Of a DNA stretch of 64,000 nucleotides, positions 1-14,941 are shown piece after piece (the first letter of the stretch is position 1; every line of letters begins with the position of its first letter). The DNA lies in NCBI RefSeq assembly GCF_036488675.1, contig NZ_CP133149.1:1-64000 (forward strand). Direction: 5' to 3'. Source of the stretch: Sinorhizobium chiapasense. Lineage in GTDB: Bacteria > Pseudomonadota > Alphaproteobacteria > Rhizobiales > Rhizobiaceae. Under the pieces are notes generated by a model. The model made no database searches and was not told the origin of the DNA. It saw nothing but the letters and a program-made list of their open reading frames with translations. The translations under genes and the position numbers were made by a program.

Positions 1-1176
1 ATGACGCGACACCTCAGCAGCCTTTCCTTCATGGAGAATTTCTCCAGCAAGCTCGAGCTGGCGTTGAACAATTTGAGCATGGCGCAGTTCCCGCCGGATG
101 CGCGGCGCACTATGCGCAAGTTCACATCTACCGAAGTCGCTCAGCTTTTAGATGTCACCGAAGCCTACATCCGGCAGGTTGCCGCAAAGGAGCAGGGCCC
201 TTCCCCCGAAATCTCCAACGGTCGCCGGCTCTATACCCTAGAGCAGGTCCTCGAACTGCGGATGGCGCTCGCCGCCAACGGCCGCAAGAAGTGGATGAAT
301 CCGCGCCGTTCAGGCAACGAACAGTGCCAGATTATCGCAGTCACCAATTTCAAGGGCGGATCCAGCAAGACGTCCACCACCATCCATCTTGGACATTACC
401 TGGCTTTACGCGGTTACCGCGTTCTCGCCGTTGATCTTGACCCGCAGGCGTCCCTGACAGCTCTGCATGGCAACCTCCCGAACTTCGACTACAGAGGCGG
501 GGATACCCTCTATTCGGCGATTCGTTTCGAGGATCCGGTTCCAACAAAGTCGATCGTTCACCAAACGCATATCGCCGGCTTCGACGTGATCTGCGCCGGC
601 CTCGAACTCACCGAATTTGAAACGGCCGTCGCGCTGGAGATGCGACGGGCCGGAGGGACAGGCTTCCTGCTTCGCGTTTCCCAGGCCCTCGAACAGGTGG
701 CGGACGACTACGATTTCATTCTGATGGATTCGGCGCCATCTTTGAACTTCTTGACGCTGTCATCCCTCACTGCCGCGACAGGCGTCGTCATCCCTGTTCC
801 GGCGCACATGCTTGACGTGGACTCGACCGCCAAATTCCTCGAGCTCGCTGCATCATATATGCAGATCCTCGATGAGGTAGGCACATCGGCTCAATGGGAT
901 TTCGCAAAGTTCCTCATCACGAAATTCGAACCCAACGACCATCCCCAGGCGAATATGTCAGCCCTCATGCGGCAGGTGTTTGGTGAAGACCTGCTGTTGA
1001 ACTCTGTCATTAAGTCAACTGCGGTCGCAGACGCCCTAACCTGGAAGCAAAGTCTGTACGAAGTGCAGCGGGCGCGCTTCTCCGCTCCCAAGACCTATGA
1101 CCGCGCCATCGAGTCCATCAATGCGGCCAACGCCGAACTGGAAAGCCTATTCTGGAAGGCATGGGGGAGAGAATGA
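1..1176 (+). CDS. repA: Plasmid partition ATPase RepA (ParA family)
   Basis: RepA is the ParA-type Walker ATPase of repABC plasmids. With RepB it segregates the plasmid, and it represses its own operon. The 391-residue protein has an N-terminal MerR/HTH-like segment (about residues 38-70) that would bind the operator, then a deviant Walker A, KGGSSKTST (118-126), and the ParA-typical DLDPQASL and DSAPSL motifs. Length is normal for the family. The first base of the window is the A of its ATG, so promoter and any upstream parS lie outside. It overlaps repB by ATGA, implying translational coupling. Family assignment is firm from motifs and gene order. Confidence 0.96.
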   Translation: MTRHLSSLSFMENFSSKLELALNNLSMAQFPPDARRTMRKFTSTEVAQLLDVTEAYIRQVAAKEQGPSPEISNGRRLYTLEQVLELRMALAANGRKKWMNPRRSGNEQCQIIAVTNFKGGSSKTSTTIHLGHYLALRGYRVLAVDLDPQASLTALHGNLPNFDYRGGDTLYSAIRFEDPVPTKSIVHQTHIAGFDVICAGLELTEFETAVALEMRRAGGTGFLLRVSQALEQVADDYDFILMDSAPSLNFLTLSSLTAATGVVIPVPAHMLDVDSTAKFLELAASYMQILDEVGTSAQWDFAKFLITKFEPNDHPQANMSALMRQVFGEDLLLNSVIKSTAVADALTWKQSLYEVQRARFSAPKTYDRAIESINAANAELESLFWKAWGRE

Positions 1177-2165
1177 GCCGCAAGGACTCGAAGGGCCTGT
1201 TTGCTAACGTCCTGGGTCAGCTCGAGAGCTCGCCCGAGAGGGGAGGGGGGCAGAGAACGACGTCCCCACATCTTCTGAAAGTGGCGGCTGGGGTCAGGCA
1301 GATCCAGGAGCGCAGCGAATTCGCTGAGCGGCTGCTGAAGGATGGCGGTCAGATCATCGAGATCGACCCAGACGATGTACTGGATTCTGCAATTCCGGAT
1401 CGCTTCGCGTCGGCATACGATGCGGCGAACCTCTCCGAACTCATGCAGTCGATGGGAGAGCACGGGCAGAGTACACCCGGGCTTGTGCGCTCAGTGCAAG
1501 GCGCCGCGAAACCGTTTCAGATCGTTTTCGGTCGCCGTCGCCTCGCAGCCGCCAAACTCTTGGGCGTCAAGTTCAAGGCGATTGCGCGGGATCTCAGTGA
1601 TGAGGATGCGGTCGTTCTTCAAGGCGAGGAGAATAGCAACCGCAATGATCTCTCCTTCATAGAGCGTTGCCTTTTCGCGCATTCGCAAGAGGAGGCCGGT
1701 TTCGGTCGCGACGTGATCTGCAAATCACTGAGCACTGGCAAATCGCATATTTCGGAAATGATCCGGCTCGCCAACGCGTTGCCGCGAGAGATTGTCCTGG
1801 AGATTGGCCCGGCCCCAGAGATCGGCCGCCGGCGCTGGCTAGACTTGGAGGCCCGATGGGCGGCACATGCGGCCCCGCTTCAGGCGGCCCAGGAAGCGCT
1901 TGGCCGAGCCGAAACTCTAAGCGGAGGACGCGCCGCCCGATTTAACGCCGTTTTTGACGTGCTCGGCGCGGAGCAAGACCCCACCCCAGCGACCGTAGAC
2001 GCCACACAGCTCGTAGCCCACGGCCTTGTTTTGGGGCAGGTGAGCCACGCCAAATCCGGCTCCAAACTCGCTTTCAACAAATCCGTACCGGCTGGGTTCG
2101 TCGACTTCGTAGCGGCGCAGATTGAGACGCTGCACGATCAGTTCGTGCAGCGAAAGAAACAGTAG
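1173..2165 (+). CDS. repB: Plasmid partition protein RepB (ParB family)
   Basis: RepB is the centromere-binding partner of RepA. The start is set at 1173 (MSRKDSKGLF, 330 aa), because this ATG overlaps the repA stop as ATGA and the N-terminus matches the usual RepB start; an in-frame ATG at 1161 would add four residues. Visible ParB features are FGRRRLAAAKLLG (a GERR-like box) and EENSNRNDLSFIE, followed by an HTH around GRDVICKSLSTGKSHISEM and the RepB C-terminal domain. It is second in the repABC operon. No parS matching a form I can recall was recognised nearby. Confidence 0.95.
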   Translation: MSRKDSKGLFANVLGQLESSPERGGGQRTTSPHLLKVAAGVRQIQERSEFAERLLKDGGQIIEIDPDDVLDSAIPDRFASAYDAANLSELMQSMGEHGQSTPGLVRSVQGAAKPFQIVFGRRRLAAAKLLGVKFKAIARDLSDEDAVVLQGEENSNRNDLSFIERCLFAHSQEEAGFGRDVICKSLSTGKSHISEMIRLANALPREIVLEIGPAPEIGRRRWLDLEARWAAHAAPLQAAQEALGRAETLSGGRAARFNAVFDVLGAEQDPTPATVDATQLVAHGLVLGQVSHAKSGSKLAFNKSVPAGFVDFVAAQIETLHDQFVQRKKQ

Positions 2166-2184
2166 TTCACAGACTTGGAACTAG
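2164..2184. repeat. Inverted repeat just after repB
   Basis: TAGTTC and GAACTA arms (6 bp) are separated by 9 bp immediately at the repB stop codon. RepABC plasmids often place a palindromic parS in or next to the operon, but the usual parS is an uninterrupted 16-bp palindrome, which this is not. It is recorded only as a candidate protein-binding or RNA structure. Confidence 0.3.
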
Positions 2185-2197
2185 GAGGATAACCGCA

Positions 2198-2255
2198 AAA
2201 GAAAAAGGCCCCCAAACGTTGCCGTCGTGGAAGCCTTCCTCTGATGTAGCGATCT
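2198..2255 (-). ncRNA. incA: Antisense RNA (incA/ctRNA) of the repABC operon, approximate ends
   Basis: Every repABC operon carries a small counter-transcribed RNA between repB and repC that limits RepC translation and sets incompatibility. Here the minus strand has a CTTGAC -35 hexamer (2286-2281), a weak -10 about 17 nt further on, and a terminator: an 8-bp stem (2206-2213 with 2229-2236, two G-U pairs) followed by a T-rich tract on the minus strand (complement of 2198-2205). The 5' end is estimated from the promoter, so the limits are approximate. Position and the terminator are the main support. Confidence 0.65.
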
Positions 2256-2344
2256 GAGAATCGCATTTCCACGAATCCCCGTCAAGAGTCTTTGGCACCG
2301 TTTTTGGTGAGCGGACTTCTTTTGCCTCTTGAAAGGTGAAGGAA

Positions 2345-3559
2345 ATGCAGGTTGGAAATGTGACGACGCCCTTTGGGCGGCGGCCGGTTTCGCTTGCCCA
2401 AATCAGAGGGCAAATGCGGACGGCCGAAATCAGACCCGGTAAGGCAGCCGACAAATGGAAGGTGTTCCGTGACGCTTGCGAGGCGAGGGCTGTTCTCGGC
2501 ATCCAGGACCGCGCTCTGGCGGTCCTCGATGCGCTGTTGACGTTCTACCCGGACAACGAGCTTTGCGAGGAGCGAGGCCTCGTCGTCTTTCCGTCGAACG
2601 ACCAGCTCTCAGTACGCGCGCACGGCATCGCCGGCGCGACGCTGCGCCGGCATCTCGCCGCGCTCGTCGACGCTGGCCTGATCCAGCGCAAGGACAGCGC
2701 CAACGGCAAACGTTACGCCCGCAAGAACGAGACCGGTGCGATCGAGGAGGCGTTCGGCTTCAGCCTGGCGCCGCTACTGGCTCGCGCCGAGGAACTGGCG
2801 CACGCCGCACAACAGGTTGCCGCAGAGCGCAAGCGCTTCCGCATCACCAAGGAAGCGTTGTCAATCTGCCGGCGCGACGTCCGCAAGCTGATCAGCGCGG
2901 CGATGGAGGAGGGGGCTGCCGGCGACTGGGGACGCATCGAGGAGATATTCCTCGGCCTGACCGGGCGCATCCCCCGCACGCCGACGATCGCGGATCTACA
3001 GCAAATCCTCGAGGAAATGGAGATGCTCCGCGAGGAAATCATCAACCGGCTGGAAACTCAGGAAAATTCCCAGAATATGAGCAGCAATGCTGTTCAAAAC
3101 GAACGCCACATACAGAATTCAAATACCGAATCCAGCTATGAACTTGAACCTAGCTCTGGAAACGAGCAGGGGGCGGAGGCGAGCCAGACCAGCCGGCCGA
3201 CGAGCGAGCCGATAAAGGCATTTCCGTTAGGCATGGTGCTGAAGGCCTGCCCAGAGATCAACGATTATGGGCCGGGGGGCGCGGTTGGAAGCTGGCGCGA
3301 CCTGATGTCGGCGGCGGTCGTCGTTCGATCGATGCTGGGGGTTAGCCCGTCGGCCTATCAGGACGCCTGCGAGGTCATGGGACAGGCTAATGCCGCGGTT
3401 GCTGTCGCCTGCATCCTCGAAAGGGCCGGGCACATAAAAAACGCCGGGGGCTACCTGCGTGATCTCACGCGAAAGGCGGCGCGCGGCGAGTTTTCGCTCG
3501 GGCCTATGCTAATGGCGTTGATGCGGGCGAATGCGTCGGCCGGGCGTAAGGCGTCATGA
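2345..3559 (+). CDS. repC: Replication initiator RepC
   Basis: RepC is the essential replication initiator of repABC plasmids and binds an origin inside its own gene. The 404-residue protein starts MQVGNVTTPFGRR; this ATG is preferred over the in-frame GTG at 2336 because it follows GAAAGGTGAAGG and matches the RepC N-terminus. An N-terminal winged-helix region (about 90-160) contains ATLRRHLAALVDAGLIQRKD. A polar, low-complexity linker at about residues 235-275 corresponds to a locally AT-rich DNA stretch. Length and order (repA-repB-ctRNA-repC) are typical. Translation is expected to be controlled by the antisense RNA upstream. Confidence 0.95.
   Translation: MQVGNVTTPFGRRPVSLAQIRGQMRTAEIRPGKAADKWKVFRDACEARAVLGIQDRALAVLDALLTFYPDNELCEERGLVVFPSNDQLSVRAHGIAGATLRRHLAALVDAGLIQRKDSANGKRYARKNETGAIEEAFGFSLAPLLARAEELAHAAQQVAAERKRFRITKEALSICRRDVRKLISAAMEEGAAGDWGRIEEIFLGLTGRIPRTPTIADLQQILEEMEMLREEIINRLETQENSQNMSSNAVQNERHIQNSNTESSYELEPSSGNEQGAEASQTSRPTSEPIKAFPLGMVLKACPEINDYGPGGAVGSWRDLMSAAVVVRSMLGVSPSAYQDACEVMGQANAAVAVACILERAGHIKNAGGYLRDLTRKAARGEFSLGPMLMALMRANASAGRKAS
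3055..3165. other. Putative origin of replication (oriV) inside repC
   Basis: In studied repABC plasmids the origin is an AT-rich segment within repC. The stretch here, coding for the Q/N/S-rich linker, is visibly richer in A and T than the surrounding GC-rich repC sequence. Limits are approximate and the assignment rests on family knowledge plus local composition. Confidence 0.45.
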
Positions 3560-3609: not shown

Positions 3610-4791
3610 TCAGATGATCAGCCGTGCCGCTCGTCCTTGCTTGCGTTCGGCGTTATTGTAGTAGCCCGCCGCCTGCGTCACCGACTTGTGCAGTGACTGC
3701 TTCATCGCCTCGGGCAGGGGAATGCCGCGGTTCGCCGCCTCGGTGAGATAGCCGGATCTCAGCCCGTGCGCCGAAAACAGCGCCGGGTCGAGACCAGCCT
3801 GTTGGCAGCGGTTTTTCAGGATCAGATTGACCGACTGCGGCGTCAGCGCCCGCCGATCGACATTGCCCCACTGATCGATGCGGCGGAACACCGGGCCGTC
3901 GGTGATCTTGGCTTCCTCGAGCCAACGTTTCAGCGCCACGACCGGCCGGCCGATTAGGATTACATGTTCATCGTCATCGCTCGTTGTCGTCTTCGTGCGG
4001 CCGAGTCGGATCGACAGGCAGGGCAGGGGAGGGGAGTTCTTGTCATTCGGATCGGCGCGCACCGGTTCTTCGTCGATCAGGTCTTCGACACGCAGCGCCG
4101 CCACCTCCGAACGGCGACGGCCGCCGGAGGCAAAGGCGGTCAGAAGCAGCGCGCGATCGCGCTGATCGACCAGGCGTTCGCCGGCGCACGCGGCCAGCAG
4201 CTTAGCGAGCACGTCGACGGTCACGGCCTTTTTGCTCTTGCGCTGTCGTGGTCGGCTGCTTGCCTTCACCGCCAGTCTCAGCGCACTTTTCAGCGATGGC
4301 GCGCCGAAAGCGCCGGTGAGCCCCCGCCAGCGGGTAAGGATCGACCACGAGGTCAGCCGCCGGCGCACCGTGCCGGGCGCGTGCGGGCCATTGGCCTTGA
4401 GCAGCCCCTCGAGGCGCAATCCAGCCTCCACATCCGCGGGCATGCCGTGGCCGGGATCCTCAGTGCGCTTGACCGGATCCCACAGGTGATGGGCGACGAA
4501 TTTTAAGAGCAGCGCTTCCGGCGCCGGCCAGGGGAGGGGGGACCAGGTCGCTAGCCGACACCAGGCTTCGAGATAGCCGAGGTCCGAGGCAAGCGCCCGA
4601 AGCGTGTTCTCGCCCATGCCTTCGCCCGCGAGATGCTTTAAGGTGGCGACGTCGTCGTCGGTCAGAAGCGCGGCAAGCTGGTCGCGCCGGTCGAACGGCA
4701 GGATGGCGTCGAGGGCGTCGAGCTCTTCGGCGCGCCTCAGCTGATCGTCGCGAACGGACGTCACCTTCGCGCTCTTGTCGGGGTTAGCCAT
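3610..4791 (-). CDS. Tyrosine recombinase/integrase
   Basis: A 393-residue tyrosine recombinase, probably acting in site-specific recombination such as dimer resolution or element integration. Catalytic features are visible: an arginine in SGGRRRSEVAALR (225-227), HGLR (H342, R345), H368, and the nucleophile in GYY (377/378). An N-terminal SAM-like core-binding domain covers about residues 40-175. The ATG at 4791 is used rather than the longer open frame, because it overlaps the stop of the upstream gene as ATGGCTAA, so the two are co-translated. Close to repABC, a role in plasmid multimer resolution is plausible but unproven. Confidence 0.85.
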   Translation of the reverse strand: MANPDKSAKVTSVRDDQLRRAEELDALDAILPFDRRDQLAALLTDDDVATLKHLAGEGMGENTLRALASDLGYLEAWCRLATWSPLPWPAPEALLLKFVAHHLWDPVKRTEDPGHGMPADVEAGLRLEGLLKANGPHAPGTVRRRLTSWSILTRWRGLTGAFGAPSLKSALRLAVKASSRPRQRKSKKAVTVDVLAKLLAACAGERLVDQRDRALLLTAFASGGRRRSEVAALRVEDLIDEEPVRADPNDKNSPPLPCLSIRLGRTKTTTSDDDEHVILIGRPVVALKRWLEEAKITDGPVFRRIDQWGNVDRRALTPQSVNLILKNRCQQAGLDPALFSAHGLRSGYLTEAANRGIPLPEAMKQSLHKSVTQAAGYYNNAERKQGRAARLII

Positions 4792-5068
4792 CGGTTTGCG
4801 GCCGCCAGCATTGGATGATGCTCTCGATCTCGCCGCGATAGTCGGACGGATAGACGGCGCCCTCTGCGCGCGCGAGATACGTGAAGATCGTCGCCATGTC
4901 CTCAGAGACCTCGATGTCGACGGCGAACAGATCGGCGATGTCGAAGCCGCCGTGGACGTCGGCGTTCCACCAGGCGAGCAGGAAGTTGACGACCCGGCGA
5001 CCTTGGCCGGTGTCCTCTTGGGCAATGTTCAGCAGTTTTTCGAGAGCAAATCTGACGCGGTCTTCCAT
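4784..5068 (-). CDS. Small conserved protein, resembles DUF7673 family
   Basis: A 94-residue acidic protein with the pattern FLLAWWNADVHGGFDIADLF, recalled as typical of a small family (DUF7673) found on proteobacterial plasmids and phages. It has no membrane segment or signal peptide. Its stop overlaps the recombinase start by 8 nt, so it is the first gene of that two-gene unit and may be a recombinase accessory factor. The function is unknown; the family name is from memory of the motif. Confidence 0.7.
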   Translation of the reverse strand: MEDRVRFALEKLLNIAQEDTGQGRRVVNFLLAWWNADVHGGFDIADLFAVDIEVSEDMATIFTYLARAEGAVYPSDYRGEIESIIQCWRPQTDG

Positions 5069-5101: not shown

Positions 5102-5503
5102 TCAGCCGGATGATGCCGGGTGAATTTTCAGGTCCGTCTGGCCGAAATCGTTTCCCTTGAACAACAGCGGCGCCTTGGCGATCCTCGCAACAGCATAGGA
5201 AAAACAGTCGCCCATATTGAGCGTGGCCGGATGGCGACCTTTACCGAAGCGGTCGAACGCTCGTTCCGCTTCCCGGTAATGCGCCTCGTCGAAAGCAATC
5301 GCCGTGACGTTGGGTAGCTGGACAAGCTGATCGACAATGTCCGAAGAGTTGGGAAATCCCTTGCCGGTCAGCACCATTCGCGCCTCGAGCAAGGTCGGCC
5401 AGCCGATCGCGACCGCCTCCCGACCGACCAACGCGGTGAAGCGTTCGGCCTCCGGCTCTGCCAGCGCCATCGCCAGAATGGCCGACGTATCGACAGCGAT
5501 CAT
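5102..5503 (-). CDS. vapC: VapC-type PIN-domain toxin ribonuclease
   Basis: A PIN-domain toxin of 133 residues. VapC toxins are Mg-dependent endoribonucleases that cut tRNA or rRNA when freed from VapB. The acidic active site is intact: D5 in VDTSAIL, E40, D99 in MGDCFSYA and D119 in KGNDFGQTDL. Its ATG overlaps the vapB stop as ATGA. The pair next to repABC probably stabilises the plasmid by post-segregational killing. Confidence 0.92.
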   Translation of the reverse strand: MIAVDTSAILAMALAEPEAERFTALVGREAVAIGWPTLLEARMVLTGKGFPNSSDIVDQLVQLPNVTAIAFDEAHYREAERAFDRFGKGRHPATLNMGDCFSYAVARIAKAPLLFKGNDFGQTDLKIHPASSG

Positions 5504-5757
5504 CGCGGCAAACCGTGTTCGTCGTAGAAATCGTCATGCGCGGATGTCGTGCCGGCCGGCACTGCGCGCCGGCCTTCGGCCATCAAATCCGACAGGACAT
5601 CGATCGGCGGCCGAGCAGACTGCTGGCGCAGTTCCAGATCATAGTGCTCGAGCGCCAGCTCGACGAGCCTGTTGATCGGCTGACCTGTGCGGCGCGCCAG
5701 CGCGTGCGCCAGATCCCTGGCCTTGGTGCTGCGGACGGAGAGCTGCGGTTCGGACAT
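5500..5757 (-). CDS. vapB: VapB-type antitoxin
   Basis: An 85-residue antitoxin with an N-terminal DNA-binding segment (SVRSTKARDLAHALARRTGQPINRLVELALEHY would form the RHH-like fold described for PSK/Rv0623-type VapB) and a C-terminal acidic/aromatic tail ending HDDFYDEHGLPR that would clamp the PIN toxin. It precedes vapC with a 4-nt overlap, the classical antitoxin-first order. Autoregulation is likely through a site upstream; a perfect inverted repeat lies about 75 bp before its start. Confidence 0.88.
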   Translation of the reverse strand: MSEPQLSVRSTKARDLAHALARRTGQPINRLVELALEHYDLELRQQSARPPIDVLSDLMAEGRRAVPAGTTSAHDDFYDEHGLPR

Positions 5758-6024: not shown

Positions 6025-6729
6025 TTAAGGCTTCAGTCTTGCCTTTCCAGCCTCCATGAACCGCGACGTCAATTCCTCCATTGCTTCGAAGGGGTTCGCC
6101 TGCTTGGATGCACGAAGGTTTTCCGCCTGCTCGACGAATTCCGCCAAGAGCTCCTTCAAGGTGTCCGGATTCGCGGCCAATCGTATCAGCGAGTTCACGC
6201 CGTTCTGAGCATAGCCAAGGAATGTTTCGTTCCTCGCCGCGGTCTCCTGAAGCATCTCTTCGGTTATGCGGTCGGCCGGAGCGACGAAGGCCCCATCCTG
6301 CCAATCCACATATAGCGAGGCGTTCTTTGCCCCGTTCGATTTGGCATGAAACTCGACCTGGGTCTTCTGAAACGCCTCGAGCGCCGCTTTCATGTCACCC
6401 CGCTTGCGCGCGTCTTTCTCGTCCTGCGAAGGCTCGAGCATATAGGCGTTCTGTTTGTTCTTGGCCGCGTGATGCCCAAGGGCGGTCAGCGCCTTCTTCT
6501 TATCGACGTCGTGGCCGAGTACCAAGCTGACGGCCCAAGCGCCCAACTTCTCGACCTTCGCGCATTCCTCCAGGGAAATTTGATGGAGACAAAGCGCGCG
6601 TGCTTTGGCGCCAACCCCTGCAAGCACCTTCGCTTCGAGGTACAATTGTTCCGCATTGGTGAACGTCACTTTCGCACCCGCGAGCAGGGTGTCGATCGAA
6701 GTTTCGGCCCTTCCGTCACCATCAGTCAT
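6025..6729 (-). CDS. AbiV-like abortive infection protein (HEPN-like fold)
   Basis: A 234-residue helical protein. The block NAEQLYLEAKVLAGVGAKA followed by LCLHQISLEECAKVEKLG matches the conserved AbiV pattern (NAxxLxxEAxxLxxxGxxxRAxxLxxLxLEElgK). AbiV of lactococci aborts phage infection by blocking translation. The start at 6729 is chosen because GGGAG sits 6 nt upstream; a longer frame from 6801 or 6795 would overlap the preceding gene and lacks a ribosome site. It is second in an apparent two-gene unit with the unknown gene 6776-7630. Defence function is inferred from family and neighbourhood. Confidence 0.65.
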   Translation of the reverse strand: MTDGDGRAETSIDTLLAGAKVTFTNAEQLYLEAKVLAGVGAKARALCLHQISLEECAKVEKLGAWAVSLVLGHDVDKKKALTALGHHAAKNKQNAYMLEPSQDEKDARKRGDMKAALEAFQKTQVEFHAKSNGAKNASLYVDWQDGAFVAPADRITEEMLQETAARNETFLGYAQNGVNSLIRLAANPDTLKELLAEFVEQAENLRASKQANPFEAMEELTSRFMEAGKARLKP

Positions 6730-6775
6730 CGAATACTCCCGCGCTTTCTTGCACCACCCACGCTTGGGTGACGCA

Positions 6776-7630
6776 TCAGTAGATTTCCTTGGCATGATCA
6801 TGAAGGCGGAATTGCTGGACGTAAGGCGGCTTTCGCGATCGGTTCATCGCTTCCCAATACATCGCGACCGCGACCGGCTCGGTGATCTCGGATGGCACGC
6901 GATAGCTGTAGGCCGGAAAATCCGCGCCCGGGATATTGGTCCGATGCCATGACCGTACGAACTCAGGTTGGAGATACCGGTAAATGGCCCACCGAATGTT
7001 GTTCAAATATTCCGCTATCTGGCTTGAATGGTACATGAAGATGTTCTCGTGGAACCATTCACAGAAGGTCTCGACGGCAAGATAACCATCTTGTTCGCTG
7101 ATCGGATGGCCGGCCTCCTCTAGTATTTTCCGGATATGTCGGACGTTCGTGGCGAGCCGGGCGAGATTATGCTTGGCAATATCGCCGCAGATCTTGAGGT
7201 ATCGAAACCGGGCAACGCGCAGGTCGGCGGCCAGATTGATCGAGTGCAGGTTGACGCCTTCGGTGATGAACGATCCCTCCAGCCAGGAGGCAAAAGCCTC
7301 GATCGCGCTGGAAAGTTCGCCCGGCTCCTTGCCGAGTTTTGGCGCCGCACAGACCTGCCGCAGGTGAAACAGGAATGTCAGGTCCGACGGCCGCGCTCCG
7401 CTCGGTGCGTTCCTTAGCCCCAGCGGTACCGGATCGCCCTTGAACGCTTTGATTTCCGAAAGGAAGTCAGCCAGCAGGATCGCGAACAGACGAGCATGCT
7501 GGCGCGTCTCAAAGAGGAGGTTGCTCGTCTCGACCCTGTCGGTCTTCACGAACATCGCCCAATTCACCATGCCGTCGATCATTTCCCACGCCGAGTTGAG
7601 GATGATCGCTTCGCGCTCGGTATCGTTCAT
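6776..7630 (-). CDS. Unknown protein, helical, paired with AbiV-like gene
   Basis: A 284-residue soluble protein starting MNDTEREAIIL after a GGGAG ribosome site. I do not recognise a family. It appears mostly alpha-helical, with a notable charged/aromatic stretch around GDIAKHNLARLATNVRHIRKIL (split here only as a description) and an aromatic C-terminal third (FHENIFMYHSSQIAEYL). No signal peptide, membrane segment or metal motif is seen. It ends 47 bp before the AbiV-like start and shares its direction, so the two are probably co-transcribed, which suggests a partner or sensor role. Confidence 0.7.
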   Translation of the reverse strand: MNDTEREAIILNSAWEMIDGMVNWAMFVKTDRVETSNLLFETRQHARLFAILLADFLSEIKAFKGDPVPLGLRNAPSGARPSDLTFLFHLRQVCAAPKLGKEPGELSSAIEAFASWLEGSFITEGVNLHSINLAADLRVARFRYLKICGDIAKHNLARLATNVRHIRKILEEAGHPISEQDGYLAVETFCEWFHENIFMYHSSQIAEYLNNIRWAIYRYLQPEFVRSWHRTNIPGADFPAYSYRVPSEITEPVAVAMYWEAMNRSRKPPYVQQFRLHDHAKEIY

Positions 7631-7707
7631 CTTTACTCCCAGATCGTTCCCAGCAAACTACTGTAGAACCTTGTCCGAATCCGCCTACCTTGTTCAGGAA
7701 TAGCAAT

Positions 7708-8880
7708 ATGACTTGGGCGCCTATTTACGTCCTGCCGAATATACCGCTGGATGCAGCGATCGGCTGTAATCTGGCGGTGCTCGCCCCGGCCCATGATGAG
7801 CGTGTTACGGCGCTAAAGCGGGCACATCCGAACTTTCGCGCATTCCTCAGGCGGTTCACCGACAATTTCGGCGAGAAGTTCGAACCCTGCGTGCTGCTCC
7901 TGCACGCGTCTGCACCAGAGAGCTTTCGCCATGTCTCGGCGATCGCAAGTTTCCGCGATGCCGTCGCGATTGCTGCGATCAGCCACGCCCGCGCGCATCA
8001 GCTCTCGCATCCCCGTGGGATGCGGGTGCTATTTGGCGAGGCATTCGCCATTTACCCTTGGATGCTCGACCGGAATTTTGAGGACATTATCGGCAGTACG
8101 CCGGCGCTTCTCGGCACGCATCTCGTCTCGAGCTTCAAGGGCCAGTCTTCGCCCTCGGTGTTTCGTACAAACCTCAACCCAAGCGCGGTTGATCAGCCGC
8201 TCCTCGATGCCCTCCTGATTTGCTGGCGACGACGCTATGAGGCGGCAGAACCGGAATGGAAAGATATCGCGCTGATGCGCTCGCTCAACATGGCCTATCA
8301 GGCTTCGCTGCTGCCGGCGGGAACCGAGGCCACTTTCTACGACGTCGGGCGGATCCTGTCGCTCTGGGTCAGTGCCTTCGAGATCCTGGTCCATCCCGGA
8401 GGAAATGGTATCTCCAACAGGGACAAGGTGTTTGACCTGATCGAGCAGGCGCCTTGGCTCATTCGGGCCAGTCGGGATCTCGCCCACGACACGGGCCCTG
8501 CCAAGAAACTCGTCAAACGCACGCTGGCGTCCTGGCTATACCAGAAGCTCAACGACAGTCGTAACGACTTCCTGCACGGCAACCCAGTCGAGCGGGACAG
8601 CCTTGTCCTGGAAATCCCCCAAAGGGGCATATTCGAATATGCCGCTCCGCTCTATCGCATCGCCCTGACCGCCTTTCTGCCGCTCGTCTATGACCGGCCG
8701 CAGCCGTCGGCGGACGAGCCGTCAGCACTGGGCGCCTGGCTCGCCGATCGCATGACCTTCACCGACCCGCAGAGAAGCGCCGAAGCCGCGCTGCAAACCG
8801 TGCTGCAGCCGCCTCTGGATCCACTGGCGGGACATACCCGCGTAACCCGGCCAGCGCCCCAAAATGGTCCTTCGCAGTGA
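7708..8880 (+). CDS. HEPN-like protein with RNDFLH motif
   Basis: A 390-residue protein, divergent from the AbiV unit. Near the C-terminal third it carries SRNDFLHG (R285-H290 from this start), an exact Rx4H motif like the RNase active site of HEPN/Apea-type domains, within a helical context (SWLYQKLNDSRNDFLHGNPV). The N-terminal two thirds are unassigned. ATG 7708 follows AGGA at a usable distance; the longer frame begins with TTG at 7690. The HEPN reading is a motif-level inference; the family is otherwise unrecognised. Neighbourhood suggests defence. Confidence 0.7.
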   Translation: MTWAPIYVLPNIPLDAAIGCNLAVLAPAHDERVTALKRAHPNFRAFLRRFTDNFGEKFEPCVLLLHASAPESFRHVSAIASFRDAVAIAAISHARAHQLSHPRGMRVLFGEAFAIYPWMLDRNFEDIIGSTPALLGTHLVSSFKGQSSPSVFRTNLNPSAVDQPLLDALLICWRRRYEAAEPEWKDIALMRSLNMAYQASLLPAGTEATFYDVGRILSLWVSAFEILVHPGGNGISNRDKVFDLIEQAPWLIRASRDLAHDTGPAKKLVKRTLASWLYQKLNDSRNDFLHGNPVERDSLVLEIPQRGIFEYAAPLYRIALTAFLPLVYDRPQPSADEPSALGAWLADRMTFTDPQRSAEAALQTVLQPPLDPLAGHTRVTRPAPQNGPSQ

Positions 8881-9004
8881 ATCCGGCTTCACCGGCATTT
8901 GGCCATTTGTTCTCGTAAATGCGCTCTTTGTCCTTGCGATCCGTCGCCAAGTTGAATGATATCTTTCATCAATGCTCGGAACTTCTTAAACGACCAGGTC
9001 CCCG

Positions 9005-9664
9005 ATGCTGCTTGAACTTAAAAGCCAACTGGCGGCGGCCGGTTTCGTACTGTTGAATAGCTACCGACCCGGCGCGGACGTCGTCGACGTGGCCGAGGAG
9101 CTCGGCGAAACGCTGACGCCTTGGGAAGGCGGCCTGGTCCAGACGCTGTCGCCGCGTGCGCAAGGGGATCCAAACACCTACAGCGGCAACTTTGGCCTCG
9201 GCGCATTTCCCTTTCATACCGATCTCGCTCATTGGCGTATCCCGCCGCGCTACCTCGTTCTGAGGTGTGTTACCGGCTATGCCGATGTTCCGACGTCGCT
9301 GGTGGACGGGAATTCCCTGGTCGAGGCGCTTTCGCGCAGCTTACTGGCCCGCGCGATCTTCAAACCGCGGCGCCCGCGCGATGGGGCCTATGCCCTGTTG
9401 AGGCTTCTCGAAAACACCGCCGACGGCCGTCACCTGCTGCGGTGGGACGAGCTGTTTTTACAACCCGCCAGCCCGGTCGGGGGAAAGGCCAACGACCTGG
9501 TGCGCGAATGGCTTTCTGACTGCCAACCGATCTCGGTTGCGCTAACGCAGCCCGACGACACACTCATCATCGACAACTGGCGCATGCTTCACGCTCGTTC
9601 GCCCGTCCTTGCGGGGCGGGAAGACCGAGCCATTCAAAGGGTATATTTGAGGGGGTTGAATTGA
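9005..9664 (+). CDS. TauD/TfdA-like Fe(II)/2-oxoglutarate-dependent oxygenase
   Basis: A 219-residue protein with the facial triad of TauD-like oxygenases: FPFHTDLAHW gives H71-x-D73, and IIDNWRMLHARSPV gives the distal H196, followed by an arginine (R208 or R212) suited to 2-oxoglutarate binding. These enzymes hydroxylate small molecules, or occasionally macromolecules, using O2. It is shorter than taurine dioxygenase (about 280 aa). The gene overlaps the next one by TTGA, so the two are translated together. The substrate cannot be read from sequence. In this context it might modify a nucleotide, a phage component or a small signal, but that is speculation. Confidence 0.72.
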   Translation: MLLELKSQLAAAGFVLLNSYRPGADVVDVAEELGETLTPWEGGLVQTLSPRAQGDPNTYSGNFGLGAFPFHTDLAHWRIPPRYLVLRCVTGYADVPTSLVDGNSLVEALSRSLLARAIFKPRRPRDGAYALLRLLENTADGRHLLRWDELFLQPASPVGGKANDLVREWLSDCQPISVALTQPDDTLIIDNWRMLHARSPVLAGREDRAIQRVYLRGLN

Positions 9665-10617
9665 AGAAAACGATAGAGCCGGCCGCGACGCCAGCGGCCT
9701 ATGATCCGGAGGCGCTCTACGCCAAGGCCGAGCGCTACATCCAGCAGATGAGCGATCTCGACAAGGACAATTGGGACTATGCACTCTGGTCGAGCCTCGC
9801 CCTCGAATTCCTGGCGCGTGCGGCTCTCGCCAATATCAGCCCTGTGCTGCTCGCCGAAACAGACAAGGCATCCTGGTCCAGCCTCTGTTTCTCCCTCGGT
9901 TTTACGCCCAAGGAAAAGAAGTTCACTCCTCGCTCGATCGCTATTGGCGAGGTCTTCAAGCGCCTCGAGGAAATCATCGACGATTTCGTCGACGAACATG
10001 TGAAATTCGGCGTGCGCCACACAGGCAAGCGCAATGCCGAGCTTCACTCAGGTGAACCCGCATTCGACGGGGTCAAGGGATCGAGTTGGCAACCGCGTTT
10101 CTATGAAAGCTGCGACGTGCTTCTCGCATCAATGGGGATGACGCTCGCGGACTTCCTTGGCGAGAACGAAGCCAAGGTTGCTCGCAAGCTCATCGATGCC
10201 GCTGCCGACGAGAGCGCGAAGGCCGTGCAAGGCGACATCGAAAAGCACAAGGCACTCTGGGACGCTCTCGATGCAGACGAGCGTGAGAAGCTCGCCGGGC
10301 AGGCTGCGCTCTTGGCTACCCGGCATGCGGGGCATCGTGTCTCCTGTCCTGCCTGCACGTCACAGGCGCTGGTGCACGGCGACCCGATCTCGGATCCGAC
10401 CAGGAAATTCAGTGAAGACGAGATCACCGAGACGCAGGAATATCTGCCGAACCAGTTCGAATGCACCGCTTGCCGCCTGAAGATATCCGGTCTGTCGCGC
10501 CTGGCTGTCGCCGGGGTGAGCGACCGCTACAAGAAAACCCAGCTCTACGATCCCGCCGAATTTTATGCGCCGGCCGATGATTGGTCCGGGTACGAGGACG
10601 ACAATAACGAACGTTGA
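9661..10617 (+). CDS. HEPN-like protein with C-terminal zinc ribbon
   Basis: A 318-residue protein starting at a TTG that overlaps the oxygenase stop (TTGA). It contains RHTGKRNAELHSGEP with R124-N-A-E-L-H129, an Rx4H motif like HEPN RNases. A four-cysteine zinc ribbon follows (SCPACTSQ and FECTACRLK, about residues 228-280), and the tail is acidic. Coupling to the oxygenase argues that the two proteins work together. A HEPN domain joined to a nucleic-acid-type zinc ribbon would fit an RNA- or DNA-triggered nuclease, but the activity is an inference from two short motifs. Confidence 0.68.
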   Translation: MKKTIEPAATPAAYDPEALYAKAERYIQQMSDLDKDNWDYALWSSLALEFLARAALANISPVLLAETDKASWSSLCFSLGFTPKEKKFTPRSIAIGEVFKRLEEIIDDFVDEHVKFGVRHTGKRNAELHSGEPAFDGVKGSSWQPRFYESCDVLLASMGMTLADFLGENEAKVARKLIDAAADESAKAVQGDIEKHKALWDALDADEREKLAGQAALLATRHAGHRVSCPACTSQALVHGDPISDPTRKFSEDEITETQEYLPNQFECTACRLKISGLSRLAVAGVSDRYKKTQLYDPAEFYAPADDWSGYEDDNNER

Positions 10618-10627
10618 CGAGCCGCGC

Positions 10628-11152
10628 TCAAAACTCCCTCAGCGTCGCGAATTCGGTTTGTTCGGACGGTATCCCGAGCGCGGTCATTCCGCTCAGTACC
10701 CCGGCCACGTTGCCGTGGTAGCTGACCTTCCACCGCGCCAAAGATGTCACATTCCTCATCACCTCGTAAAAATAGGGATGATCGACGCTTGAGACGGAGT
10801 GCCCCATGACGAAGATCTCAGTCACGCCGGAAAGCCTGGCGAAAAACGGGGCGTTGGTTTCGATCACCGCCTCGGTCGGCTTGAACGTCTCCTTGAAGTA
10901 ATCGTCGATCAGACCCTGACCTTCGACCACGCGCATGTCCGCATCCTCGGGATCGGCGTAGATCCGGTAGGGATCGAGATTCGCCTCCGGCTCCCAGCCA
11001 TGACCAAGGATCAACGTTTCGGTCGGGTTCGCCGCTGACCCATGAATGTGCAGCACCTGGCTGTCCGGAACGCCATAGAGCTGCTGCAGCGACGACGTGT
11101 AGTTGAAGTTCAGGAAAATCGCTGACCGCCGGTAGGAATTCCAAGACGACAA
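10628..11152 (-). pseudogene. AbiH-like abortive infection protein, N-terminally truncated
   Basis: 174 residues matching the C-terminal part of AbiH proteins: FLNFNYTSSLQQLYG, QVLHIHGSA and LILGHGWEPE are the characteristic successive motifs, ending in a region with IFVMGHSVSSVDHPYF. Full AbiH proteins are about twice this length and begin with a GNGFDL-type nucleotide-binding motif, which is absent; the preceding 60 bp contain no continuation in any frame that I can see. It is therefore probably a remnant, although a shorter functional variant cannot be excluded. It converges with the HEPN-zinc ribbon gene. Confidence 0.7.
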
Positions 11153-11212: not shown

Positions 11213-14200
11213 TCATCGCCTTTTGAGATTTACGCGTATCTCATCACCTAGGAACCAACCACCTCCCTCGCTCCACGACGAGATGATTCCGCGCGTCTCA
11301 AGCCATTGGACCAACGCACGATTTTCATCTGATGTTGGCAATCTTGGAGTGTGATATCCTGTCGTGATCTCAGAAAAAGGCTCTGCAAGCGCCGCAAGCA
11401 CTTCGCGCACTTCGTCGACCGTCATAGTCGAGTGAAACTTGTTGAACAGCGAAATCTGCGTCCCAACGGGCCTTGAATTCAGTATCAGTGATCGCGCTCT
11501 AGCCGCGTCAAGGCCGGATATACGAGCGTTGGTGCGGTCAAGAATCGGGCCGATGAGTGCCGCTCGTTTTGGCAGTTCCGTCAGCGTATTCAGATCGATT
11601 AGGTCGATTATCGCGCGCTTATCGTCATCTGTTATGTCGGCTTGAAGGAGCCCTTCTCGGAAGACGTCGTCGAGACCGAACATGTCGGGATCGGCGAGAT
11701 AAGCTTCGATGTTTTCTGCCACGAAAAGGACCGGCAAGTCTGTACTGACGTCCAGGCTGTCAAGGTTCTCCTTTGAAAAGGTGATCTTCCGCTCTTTTAT
11801 GAGAGTAGTGAGCTTCGAAGAATCGAGGCTCTTGGGAAAATTCTTGAACGTATTGGGCAACGCTCGGACATATTCCCGGTAGCCGTCATCGCTCAATGCA
11901 TTCGCGTTAACAAGGAATTGGCGTAGCAGCAGCGTCTCCGGATCGTTAGGCAGACGGTGGTTCAGAATTGCCGCGCGCACATCTTTCCGATCAAGATAGG
12001 CCACCAGGATTTCCGCCGCGAAGCCACTGCCTGCCATGAACGAGATACAGTTCTGCCATGTCGGCACGATACGTCGCAGCCCAAACACCATGGCGTGCAA
12101 TTTCTCCGGAACACCCTCCAGCGTTGGCAGGAGAGCCGTCTGTCGACCGAGAAACTCACGAAGATTGTCGTCGTCAAGTTCCGCCCGGCCGAGGAGATCG
12201 GTTATGGCTGCGGCATCTTCCTCAGCATTGTCATGAAGCTCGAGGAGCACGTCGCTAAGATAGAGATCAAGGTCGCGTTCAACCCTCGTGATCAAGGCAC
12301 GATCTGTGAGCGAACGCAGCGTAGTGTAATTACGCTCGCGAAACGCTACGAGATTGGTCTCGCCCAGAACTTCGGAAAAGACATGTTCCAGATTGGCAAC
12401 CGAGAGTTCGAAAAGGCCTCGTCTTACCATGAAGCTCACGATGCCGTGGGATCTCCCGATTGCCGGGAGGTCTCGAACCTCGAAGCCAATGCACTCGAGG
12501 CGTTCGGGTGCCAAGTCAGATGCAAGTGCCAGAATTTCAGGAAGTCTCGCCGCGACGAAATCAGGCAACTCGTCGCCACCGCGTGCTAGGGTTTCTAGCG
12601 CCCTTTCCGGCAGGTTGGTTACCAACTGTGTGATATGGGAGAGATTGCGCTTGCTGGCGATTGCCGTCGTAACGAACTGCTTCCATCCGTCAGCGAGGCG
12701 CGAAAGCAATTCGGGGACAGCGCGCCCCGTTGCGTAATAGGCCTCGAAGAAATCTCCGCAGACTTCAAAATGAGATGCGATGAACTCTAAGAGCTTACGA
12801 GTCTGCTCGCTGTAGCGGGTCGCCTCGCTCAGAAGGCAGTCAACTAATTTGACGTTAAGGACATAGCTTTGCCCGAAGTCCGCTTCGCGCATCGCTGCGA
12901 TGACCTCATTCGGGTTGTCAATCTGAAAGCCGGGATCGGGAGTATAGAACGCCCGTACCTGTCTCAGAAACTTGTTGTCATTGGGTGAGAGCCGACCAGA
13001 ATGAAACAGCGATGTATATTGATAATACGTATCGTCAAGATGACCTTCTAGAATCAAGAAGCGAGCCAGCTCTCCCTTTTCGCCGAAGCCGTCGAAAAGA
13101 TCGGTTACACGCTCGGCGCCTGAACGCACAAGTTCATTGAATTTGGTTGTTCGAAGAGTCGCGATCTTCGCTCTAAGCTCACGAATTTGTCGCAAGCTCT
13201 CGCTCTTGTTGGCCTCAGTTTTGTTTTCGATCTCTACCATGCGCTGCAAGTAGGTCTTCTGGCTATCGACCTCGTTCTGCAAGGTGGAGATATCGATCCG
13301 CTGTCGGTGATTATAGATGTTGCGGTAGCTGATATGCGGAGTTGAGAATAACTGCTCAAACCCGTCTTGCCCAACAAGCTCCGGAAGTGTGATCCAAGAT
13401 TGCCCGCCAAGGCTGACGCCAGTGACGTCCGCGGGCAGCCGCTCGATAAGCGCCATTGCGTAGATTCGACGCAATTCTTTCAGGTCAGAAGGTGTCTGCC
13501 GTTCGGCAATGTCGATCTTTTGTTCGAGTTCCGCTATCTCGGCCTTACAAGCGGCCTCTCCGTGTGTAACAAGTTCATCGTGGCGGCCCAGAATATCAGC
13601 GAGATTTCCCTCGCCCCGGTGGAGCTGTTCGAAATCTTTGGGGTAGACGTTCTTATAGATCAAGATCGCAAGCAGCTTGTTGGCGTCCAGCGTATTTTCG
13701 TCGTCGGTTTCCAGGTTGGCGACGTAGATGGCATATTCATTGAAGATATTCTGAATGAGCCTCAAGTCATTTAGATATCTTGATACCTCTCGTAGGAACT
13801 GCCGATCAAGGCGCCCGTCTAGTTCAAGCCTCTTTCCCTGTTCCAGCACCATGTCGATCGAGTTCGAAGCGTTGATGATCGGAATGACGGGAATGATGAA
13901 TTCAAAGAACTTAGTCCGATCCGTATTAACAAACACGTCGTCGCGTAGGGCGTAAAGAAATCTAATCGTTCGTTTGACTCCCGCATTCTCATTCACCAAA
14001 CTGTTTATTTCACGCAATGTCACAAATATTTCGGCATCTTCGAAGCGATCCAGATCCTCAATGATTACGAGATCATAGTCTGTTGACTGGAAGAAGTAGA
14101 TAATCTCATCCAAATGACGGTTAAGTATTGAATCTAGATTGTCTGACGCAGGCCTTATTTCTATGTCTTTTAGAGAGATGCTTTTGAGTGACAGCCCAAA

Positions 14201-14854
14201 GCTGGCGACATAAAAGTTGTGCAACACAACCCACAAAAAAAGCAATGAAAACGCGAAGACTCCAAAATTAGGCCAATTGCTGAATGCGAGTGGATCGAAA
14301 AAGGTGCCGCTGATTATCGGTTCCCGCTTTGTGAACACGTACCAGAGCGAAAGTAGGCCGAACATGATGTACAGCGATTTGAAGATCGACAAGACGTCAG
14401 GGGATTGAATTCGCTTAAATCGCGACAGTGGAAGTTTGTTGGCATCTGCGCCGTACAGCATTTGCTGTAGTATGCTTCTTTCAATCTCTTGCCGACTCAC
14501 TTTGAGACTTGGGGCGCTAGTTTCTTTGTCGCTTGGCGGGCTGGCTTCTTTCACGAACGCGGCGAGAGATATATGAAGTGCAGGTCTTCGGTATCTTTTC
14601 AGGAACGACTGGATGATGCTGCTTTTTCCTGAACCATAAGGCCCCGTCAGCGCTATATTGTTTACCTTCGGGTCAGTCGTGGCGAAGAGCAAAGCTTCGG
14701 AATATACACCATCCTTGTCAGCTTGGTCGGTCGGGGCGAGATTTACAAATTTTGCTTTTGTGACGGCTGGGCGACCAATACCTTCCAAAAAGGCGCCGAA
14801 ACTAGTGAACAAGCCACCCAGCCAACTTGTTAATGTTGTAATGCGTTCGCCCAT
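11213..14854 (-). CDS. YobI-like membrane-associated P-loop NTPase
   Basis: A very large protein (1213 aa from the ATG at 14854; the longer frame starts with TTG at 14872). The N-terminal domain has a Walker A, GPYGSGKSS (about 71-79), and a Walker B, LVIIEDLDRF (about 262-271), the arrangement of YobI/KAP-type NTPases. Two hydrophobic segments lie between them (about 157-176 and 197-218), as in KAP ATPases, which insert membrane helices in the P-loop domain. A coiled coil (about 440-580) and a long helical repeat-like C-terminus follow. Related NTPases occur in defence islands; its job here is inferred from that. Base composition is more AT-rich than its neighbours, suggesting separate acquisition. 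Confidence 0.8.
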   Translation of the reverse strand: MGERITTLTSWLGGLFTSFGAFLEGIGRPAVTKAKFVNLAPTDQADKDGVYSEALLFATTDPKVNNIALTGPYGSGKSSIIQSFLKRYRRPALHISLAAFVKEASPPSDKETSAPSLKVSRQEIERSILQQMLYGADANKLPLSRFKRIQSPDVLSIFKSLYIMFGLLSLWYVFTKREPIISGTFFDPLAFSNWPNFGVFAFSLLFLWVVLHNFYVASFGLSLKSISLKDIEIRPASDNLDSILNRHLDEIIYFFQSTDYDLVIIEDLDRFEDAEIFVTLREINSLVNENAGVKRTIRFLYALRDDVFVNTDRTKFFEFIIPVIPIINASNSIDMVLEQGKRLELDGRLDRQFLREVSRYLNDLRLIQNIFNEYAIYVANLETDDENTLDANKLLAILIYKNVYPKDFEQLHRGEGNLADILGRHDELVTHGEAACKAEIAELEQKIDIAERQTPSDLKELRRIYAMALIERLPADVTGVSLGGQSWITLPELVGQDGFEQLFSTPHISYRNIYNHRQRIDISTLQNEVDSQKTYLQRMVEIENKTEANKSESLRQIRELRAKIATLRTTKFNELVRSGAERVTDLFDGFGEKGELARFLILEGHLDDTYYQYTSLFHSGRLSPNDNKFLRQVRAFYTPDPGFQIDNPNEVIAAMREADFGQSYVLNVKLVDCLLSEATRYSEQTRKLLEFIASHFEVCGDFFEAYYATGRAVPELLSRLADGWKQFVTTAIASKRNLSHITQLVTNLPERALETLARGGDELPDFVAARLPEILALASDLAPERLECIGFEVRDLPAIGRSHGIVSFMVRRGLFELSVANLEHVFSEVLGETNLVAFRERNYTTLRSLTDRALITRVERDLDLYLSDVLLELHDNAEEDAAAITDLLGRAELDDDNLREFLGRQTALLPTLEGVPEKLHAMVFGLRRIVPTWQNCISFMAGSGFAAEILVAYLDRKDVRAAILNHRLPNDPETLLLRQFLVNANALSDDGYREYVRALPNTFKNFPKSLDSSKLTTLIKERKITFSKENLDSLDVSTDLPVLFVAENIEAYLADPDMFGLDDVFREGLLQADITDDDKRAIIDLIDLNTLTELPKRAALIGPILDRTNARISGLDAARARSLILNSRPVGTQISLFNKFHSTMTVDEVREVLAALAEPFSEITTGYHTPRLPTSDENRALVQWLETRGIISSWSEGGGWFLGDEIRVNLKRR

Positions 14855-14941
14855 GAGTAACCTAACTATCAAAAATCCAAGCGATAAATATCACTGACGA
14901 GCCGGAAAAACCTACTTTTTAACCGCCAAGAAATCCGCATT

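What the first reader, a model, noticed from the sequence alone, without database searches (positions are those of the whole stretch)
6025..10617. HEPN-rich cluster with an oxygenase: candidate undescribed defence system
Within 4.6 kb there are an AbiV-like protein, an unknown partner, and two further proteins each with an exact Rx4H motif (RNDFLH and RNAELH) as in HEPN RNases, plus a TauD-like Fe(II)/2OG oxygenase. An AbiH remnant and a YobI-like NTPase follow directly. Several HEPN-type proteins beside known Abi families is a strong defence-island signature, and I know of no named system with this gene set. The HEPN calls rest on short motifs; the rest is context.
Basis: partly seen in the sequence, partly recalled or inferred. 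Interest (0 to 1): 0.75.

Follow-up and report, generated by a model that had tools for sequence, protein, structure and literature searches.

The report
Oxygenase paired with HEPN-like nuclease
Inside a cluster of anti-phage genes on a bacterial replicon sits a two-gene unit, an iron-dependent oxygenase translationally coupled to a probable RNA-cutting protein, which recurs in distant bacteria beside known phage-defence genes and may be an undescribed defence switch.

Summary
In 54 of 54 loci with usable upstream DNA (a few near-duplicates) the conserved unit is the last two genes: a TauD-like oxygenase (9005-9664) and a 318-aa HEPN-like/zinc-ribbon protein (9661-10617, 'HZ'). They mostly overlap by 4 nt and stay paired down to ~25% identity, Streptomyces included. 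The oxygenase keeps its HxD...H...R site; HZ keeps RNxxLH and CPxC...CxxC and ends in a conserved Asn-Asp/Glu tail. The oxygenase's best solved relatives are amino-acid hydroxylases. Neighbours elsewhere include Gabija, McrBC, BrxL, Lamassu, Mokosh, Argonaute and Shedu genes; a chromosomal control gave far fewer defence matches. AbiV (plus an overlapping unknown), the RNDFLH protein, an AbiH remnant and Tmn are separate island genes; none was found near the pair in 37 other loci. My reading: an oxygenase-controlled HEPN toxin, working like HEPN-MNT but with another partner enzyme. HZ has no match above cut-off in Pfam or NCBIfam and none in PADLOC; ten searches of the held papers found no such pair. 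HEPN fold support is weak; toxicity, hydroxylation and defence are untested, and one locus keeps HZ beside a broken TauD.

The parts
9005..9664 (+). TauD-like Fe(II)/2-oxoglutarate oxygenase, 219 aa; first gene of the pair
   Evidence: PF02668 E 1.9e-12, 48.1 bits against a cut-off of 27; best solved relatives by profile include clavaminate synthase and L-Lys, L-Arg and L-Asn hydroxylases
9215..9223 (+). H71-T-D73, HxD part of the iron-binding site
   Evidence: H71 and D73 identical in 43 of 43 TauDs; in the 25-row alignment A6 H71 invariant, D73 at 90% or more (Glu in L062, L063)
9590..9592 (+). H196, distal iron-binding His (with R198, R208, R212 downstream)
   Evidence: identical in 43 of 43 and invariant in A6
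9661..10617 (+). HZ, 318 aa: HEPN-like helical domain + zinc ribbon + acidic Asn-bearing tail; second gene, TTGA overlap with TauD stop
   Evidence: 725 relatives at E<=1e-3; no Pfam/NCBIfam family above cut-off, no PADLOC family at E<=1
10030..10047 (+). RNAELH, R124-N125-x-x-x-H129 motif
   Evidence: R124, N125, L128, H129 identical in 41 of 41; 118 of 120 listed relatives RN[AST]ELH; R replaced by Q in L066
10345..10473 (+). Zinc-ribbon cysteines C229-P-x-C232 ... C268-x-x-C271
   Evidence: identical in 41 of 41 and in the 24 rows of A5; weak matches of several members to zinc-ribbon Pfam models
10594..10614 (+). C-terminal tail EDDNNER; conserved Asn-acidic end
   Evidence: Asn within the last 4 residues in 120 of 120 listed and 23 of 24 diverse relatives; N[DE] in the last 5 in 119 and 22
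7708..8880 (+). Separate island gene: ~390-aa protein with RNDFLH (start at 7690 or 7708)
   Evidence: 968 relatives, four of the listed ones named Apea-like HEPN by UniProt; no Pfam match at E<=1; weak best structural matches Csm6 and MtlR
6025..6801 (-). Separate island gene: AbiV-family protein
   Evidence: PF18728 E 2.7e-27; TIGR04498 E 3.6e-25
6776..7630 (-). Separate island gene: unknown protein (P2) overlapping AbiV by 26 nt
   Evidence: no family above cut-off; 7 plasmid relatives, no AbiV beside the 4 inspected
10628..11152 (-). AbiH C-terminal remnant
   Evidence: PF14253 profile 140-260/260, E 9.3e-36
11213..14872 (-). Tmn / YobI-like NTPase
   Evidence: PF20693 E 4.5e-122; PADLOC Tmn E 2e-85

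Best explanation
The functional unit is a two-gene operon, TauD-like oxygenase then HZ. HZ is a HEPN-type RNase toxin (RNxxLH active site) carrying a zinc ribbon; the oxygenase is its dedicated enzymatic controller, most likely keeping HZ off by hydroxylating it, in the manner in which MntA keeps HepT off by adenylylation. When the controller is lost or starved of iron, 2-oxoglutarate or oxygen, or blocked by a phage, HZ cleaves RNA and infected cells stop growing (or a plasmid-free daughter cell is killed). Shown by sequence: regular pairing, overlapping reading frames, intact catalytic residues in both, mobile and defence-rich setting. Inferred: HEPN fold and RNase activity, the direction of control, hydroxylation, and the anti-phage outcome.
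Confidence: 0.42

Rival explanations
1. Signal-and-effector defence: the oxygenase makes or senses a small molecule (for example a hydroxylated amino acid) during infection, and HZ is the effector that the molecule switches on, as in other signal-based defence systems.
For: Nearest solved relatives act on free amino acids (their substrates from recall and entry names); same pairing and setting evidence as above. HZ has a zinc ribbon and tail that could bind a ligand.
Against: No ligand-binding domain recognised in HZ. Tight coupling and matched divergence fit a physical complex at least as well.
Confidence: 0.15
2. RNA modification and restriction: the oxygenase marks cellular RNA and HZ cuts RNA lacking the mark, a restriction-modification logic at the RNA level.
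For: Modifier + nuclease gene order and regular pairing; most HEPN proteins are thought to be RNases (PMC3710099, abstract and passages).
Against: The oxygenase profile groups with amino-acid hydroxylases; none of its 35 solved-structure matches is named as acting on nucleic acid.
Confidence: 0.1
3. Plasmid or island maintenance module (addiction) without a direct anti-phage role.
For: Carried by 45 plasmid records; close to repABC here, to RepC and ParB-type genes in L005 and RepA/ParA in L066.
Against: Also on long genome contigs among defence genes of several different kinds.
Confidence: 0.15
4. One reading: one multi-gene HEPN-rich system of AbiV, partner, RNDFLH protein, TauD and HZ.
For: Contiguity in this window only.
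Against: No AbiV, P2, RNDFLH or Tmn relative near the pair in 37 other loci; RNDFLH relatives in 4 other genomes lack the pair in the 11-20 kb fetched; the 4 inspected P2 relatives of 7 lack AbiV and the pair; divergent transcription at 7630/7690.
Confidence: 0.03
5. Not HEPN and not defence: a coupled metabolic or RNA-processing pair that happens to ride on mobile elements.
For: Weak HEPN fold evidence; single metabolic genes among the neighbours.
Against: Sparse distribution (7 of 398 phylum genomes), no recurring metabolic partner among the neighbour clusters, strongly conserved RNxxLH.
Confidence: 0.15

Closest known systems
HEPN-MNT (HepT/MntA) type VII toxin-antitoxin module
   Same: Two-gene operon, HEPN RNase toxin (Rx4H) with an enzyme partner that covalently modifies it (PMC7641770, passages; PMC11586414, abstract start in a search listing); HZ model's best structural match is a chain of 7bxo, a code that occurs once in PMC7641770
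   Different: Partner is an Fe(II)/2OG oxygenase, not a nucleotidyltransferase; HZ lacks the RX4HXY tyrosine and has a zinc ribbon and acidic tail; modification not shown
HEPN superfamily defence proteins (AbiA, AbiD, AbiF, AbiJ, AbiU2, AbiV, ApeA and others; PMC3710099, passages)
   Same: R-[polar]-x3-H style motif; mobile, defence-rich setting; zinc-ribbon fusions are listed for other HEPN families
   Different: oxygenase, dioxygenase and TauD have 0 occurrences in that survey's main text; HZ matches none of the Pfam HEPN models among the families shown
Clavaminate-synthase-like amino-acid hydroxylases (clavaminate synthase, L-Arg beta-hydroxylase, asparagine oxygenase)
   Same: HxD...H...R site and profile similarity
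   Different: Shorter (219 aa against 324-364 for these) and paired with HZ in all 54 loci counted
Tmn, AbiH, AbiV (PADLOC/Pfam defence genes in the same window)
   Same: Same island
   Different: Independent genes, not parts of the pair

Membership tests
HEPN RNase superfamily (HZ) | Conserved Rx4-6H motif with polar residue after R | tested here: met
   R124, N125, H129 in 41 of 41; 118 of 120 RN[AST]ELH; one of 24 diverse members has Q for R
HEPN RNase superfamily (HZ) | Four-helix HEPN fold | tested here: inconclusive
HEPN RNase superfamily (HZ) | Match to a curated HEPN profile | tested here: inconclusive
   None among the 25 of 35 families shown for 24 members at E<=10; none for the window protein
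HEPN RNase superfamily (HZ) | RNase activity | not testable with these tools
   needs biochemistry
HEPN-MNT toxin-antitoxin | Partner is an MNT nucleotidyltransferase (GSx10DxD) | tested here: not met
   Partner is a PF02668 TauD in the window and a TauD relative in the other loci counted
HEPN-MNT toxin-antitoxin | RX4HXY with modified Tyr | tested here: not met
   The window HZ reads RNAELHSG; no Tyr at that place in the 24 rows of A5 or the rows of A1 shown
TauD/CAS-like Fe(II)/2OG oxygenase | Pfam match above curated cut-off | tested here: met
   48.1 bits vs cut-off 27
TauD/CAS-like Fe(II)/2OG oxygenase | HxD...H iron triad and 2OG-binding Arg | tested here: met
   H71, D73, H196, R208, R212 in 43 of 43; Glu for D73 in two diverse members; which Arg binds 2OG is from recall
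Toxin-antitoxin module (enzymatic, type VII-like) | Toxin harmful alone, neutralised by partner | not testable with these tools
   needs expression tests; L065 with broken TauD and intact HZ motif speaks mildly against
Known defence system in PADLOC-DB 2.0.0 | Match of TauD or HZ to any model | tested here: not met
   0 families at E<=1 for both
ApeA (RNDFLH protein) | Pfam ApeA HEPN match | tested here: not met
   0 Pfam families at E<=1; some relatives are named Apea-like HEPN by UniProt
AbiV | PF18728 / TIGR04498 above cut-off | tested here: met
   96.3 and 89 bits vs 27.1 and 27
AbiH | Full-length PF14253 | tested here: not met
   only profile 140-260 of 260; remnant

The most novel reading that the evidence does not exclude
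A bacterial counterpart of oxygenase-gated signalling: the clavaminate-synthase-like enzyme hydroxylates the conserved Asn-Asp/Glu tail at the C-terminus of a HEPN nuclease, holding it inactive; when oxygenase activity falls (phage inhibitor, loss of the enzyme, shortage of iron, 2-oxoglutarate or oxygen) unmodified nuclease accumulates and shuts the cell down. That would be an oxygenase antitoxin, and an abortive-infection switch read out by protein hydroxylation.
Probability: 0.12. Interest if true: 0.92.

Novelty: new variant of a known kind. Interest (0 to 1): 0.62.

Why it matters
A small, mobile gene pair found in two phyla couples an oxygenase to a probable RNA-cutting toxin and has no name in the libraries searched. 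If the oxygenase controls the toxin, it would add hydroxylation to the short list of covalent ways to silence a toxin, and would link phage defence to iron, oxygen and 2-oxoglutarate status. It is cheap to test: two genes, a clear catalytic motif in each, and a predicted +16 Da mass shift on a defined tail.

Tried and rejected

Neighbour survey limits: 366 ORFs within 6 kb of the pair in 43 loci (one duplicate) collapsed to 285 clusters. I passed 218 of these 285 representatives on (98 in A3, 120 in A4), chosen by hand; the 67 left out are many short ORFs but also some large ones, among them metabolic-type genes of L005, so the share of defence genes may be overstated. Tallies count families, not genes, and show only the first 25 families. 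The 20 neighbours scanned one by one were also hand-picked, by size. The control used 120 of 183 ORFs, drawn at random, from 15 chosen stretches of three genomes. It held what looks like one HamA gene (15 of its 20 families) and single matches to mad3, AriA, mad8, CARF and HEC-02A; mad3 and AriA matches among the neighbours are therefore not counted as evidence. The control is chromosomal, so it does not show enrichment over other mobile DNA. Counts include duplicates (L051) and leave out the broken L005 HZ and the cut HZ of L037 and L039; one search left out L005, L014 and L024 from the correlation.
Full report
WHAT IS THERE. The window starts at repABC-type replication genes (1-3559; my reading of the ORFs, not searched), followed by an integrase (3610-5025, PF00589), a VapBC-like pair (PSK_trans_fac 5500-5757, PIN 5102-5503), AbiV with an overlapping unknown gene, the RNDFLH protein, TauD, HZ, an AbiH remnant and Tmn. 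The motif by itself means little: 4 of 37 larger ORFs in the window carry R[ND]xxxH.

THE CONSERVED UNIT IS THE PAIR. A profile of HZ found 33 genome loci. TauD sits directly upstream in 32; the remaining contig (L038) begins near or inside HZ. Of the 38 non-window loci compared, 37 have the pair, and none of these has an AbiV, P2, RNDFLH or Tmn relative at E 1e-3; the 38th, L006, was fetched for its RNDFLH relative and lacks the pair. A search of 398 genomes of the phylum gave 7 with HZ, and a more diverse profile gave the same 7. A search of 385 genomes of the class gave 6: three already seen, two new intact ones and one decayed copy, G814. The intact ones have TauD upstream. In G814 no TauD was detected in the short stretch held; it is left out of the count. 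Plasmids: 45 records carry HZ, down to 25.6% identity in Streptomyces; in the 14 regions opened (4) TauD is present, in two of them unannotated. In sum 54 of 54 loci with usable upstream DNA, the window included and L051 (same contig as L011) not counted twice; L013/L014, L023/L024 and L003/L018 look like near-duplicates, so independent events are fewer. The two genes overlap by 4 nt in 42 of 49 loci and lie within -8 to +2 nt in six more; L005 is broken (the start codon nearest the TauD stop was used, which favours short distances). Pairwise distances of the two proteins correlate at 0.95 over 46 loci; that shows co-inheritance, and shared phylogeny alone would also raise it.

THE REVERSE TEST. 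A TauD profile in the same 398 genomes gave 8 strong matches (E 3.8e-62 or better) and then a gap to E 1.4e-20. Seven are the HZ genomes. The eighth (G038) ends 108 bases after the TauD stop, in what reads, from recall, like the start of an insertion-sequence transposase, so whether HZ follows is unknown.

ACTIVE SITES. TauD keeps H71, D73, H196, R198, R208 and R212 in 43 of 43 sequences; in a more diverse set of 25, two have Glu for D73. HZ keeps R124, N125, L128, H129 and C229, P230, C232, C268, C271 in 41 of 41; in the diverse 24, of these positions only R124 varies, Q in L066. Both proteins therefore look like enzymes under selection. HZ ends in an acidic stretch with Asn within its last four residues in 120 of 120 listed and 23 of 24 diverse relatives: DDNNE-type ends in one group and YGND-type ends in another. 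The last residues have pLDDT of about 43 in the model.

WHAT THE OXYGENASE DOES. With a profile of 25 members the best solved relatives include a non-heme iron hydroxylase (6daw), clavaminate synthase, L-lysine 3-hydroxylase, L-arginine beta-hydroxylases and asparagine oxygenase. These act on amino acids (recall and entry names). The 219-aa protein is shorter than these, so a more open pocket is conceivable. A conserved Asn-bearing tail on the regular partner makes the partner the natural candidate substrate. This last step is inference.

SETTING. Neighbours within 6 kb of the pair include McrBC, an OLD-like ATPase and a UvrD helicase in the L003 type of island, with homologous genes in L018, L019, L020 and, for the helicase, L039; the PADLOC GajA and GajB matches fit these by inference. 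GajB-type in L013, BrxL in L010, LmuB in L031, MkoC in L016 and Argonaute in L054 were assigned one by one; two SduA genes appear in the tallies. System names for the gene symbols (Gabija, Lamassu, Mokosh, Shedu) are partly from recall. Annotated plasmid regions add TrlF AAA ATPase, GIY-YIG nuclease, SIR2, AbiEi and restriction genes. Of 20 hand-picked large neighbours, 8 had PADLOC matches (2 of 10 at E<=1e-10, 6 of 10 at E<=1e-8), two of these only to methyltransferase or candidate (HEC/PDC) models. Family matches at E<=1e-10: 218 families over 98 neighbours and 102 over 120, against 20 over 120 control ORFs, 15 of the 20 being HamA models. Metabolic and phage structural genes also occur among neighbours, as expected on mobile elements. 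Sampling limits are under Tried and rejected.

RECURRING THIRD GENES. A GHKL ATPase, with a weak HSDR_N-like region in the one tested, follows the pair by 24-62 nt in 7 distinct loci (8 with the duplicate L051). TrlF precedes it in pAMI8, pSinA and an A. vitis plasmid, and follows it in a P. aeruginosa plasmid. So the pair may be a core that couples to different ATPases, or merely a frequent island neighbour.

AGAINST A STRICT ANTITOXIN. B. quebecense L065 has a frameshifted TauD beside an HZ with intact RNAELH. L005 has a split HZ. A second copy of the pair elsewhere in the L065 strain was not looked for.

VERDICT. Partly confirmed, and narrowed: the interesting object is the oxygenase-HZ pair, a probable new variant of the enzyme-controlled HEPN toxin kind, in a real defence island. 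Mechanism inferred, function untested.

Noticed in passing
L007:11016-13055 and counterparts in L008, L009, L011, L012, L016, L017: A ~680-aa GHKL ATPase (weak HSDR_N_2 region in the L007 copy) follows the pair by 24-62 nt in 7 distinct loci; possible third component.
   Followed up: partly
L062:3328-8454, L063:3334-8478, L064:3316-8460, L069:6286-10970: TrlF-family AAA ATPase directly upstream (downstream in L069) of the pair, with a GIY-YIG nuclease gene downstream in three plasmids; TrlF of L063 matches PADLOC Ppl at E 1.7e-29.
   Followed up: partly
window 3610-5025 and 6776-7630; L092, L093: The window's integrase is 60-65% identical to one beside P2 relatives near repC in Rhizobium ZX09 and A. 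tumefaciens MWF001 plasmids: a possible repC-adjacent hotspot for defence cargo.
   Followed up: partly
window 6776-7630: P2 overlaps AbiV by 26 nt here, but no AbiV relative was found beside its 4 inspected plasmid relatives; one lies beside AbiEi/AbiEii genes (L090).
   Followed up: partly
L065:6100-7960; L066: TauD frameshifted with HZ intact in B. quebecense; in B. septentrionale TauD intact but the HZ motif reads QNAELH.
   Followed up: partly
G814:C27, L112: Decayed HZ copy with several stops, no TauD detected in the short stretch held.
   Followed up: no
L054:2516-3004: A small MltR-like gene with RNHFAHH follows a divergent TauD-HZ pair, next to an Argonaute; the MltR label is from recall.
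   Followed up: no
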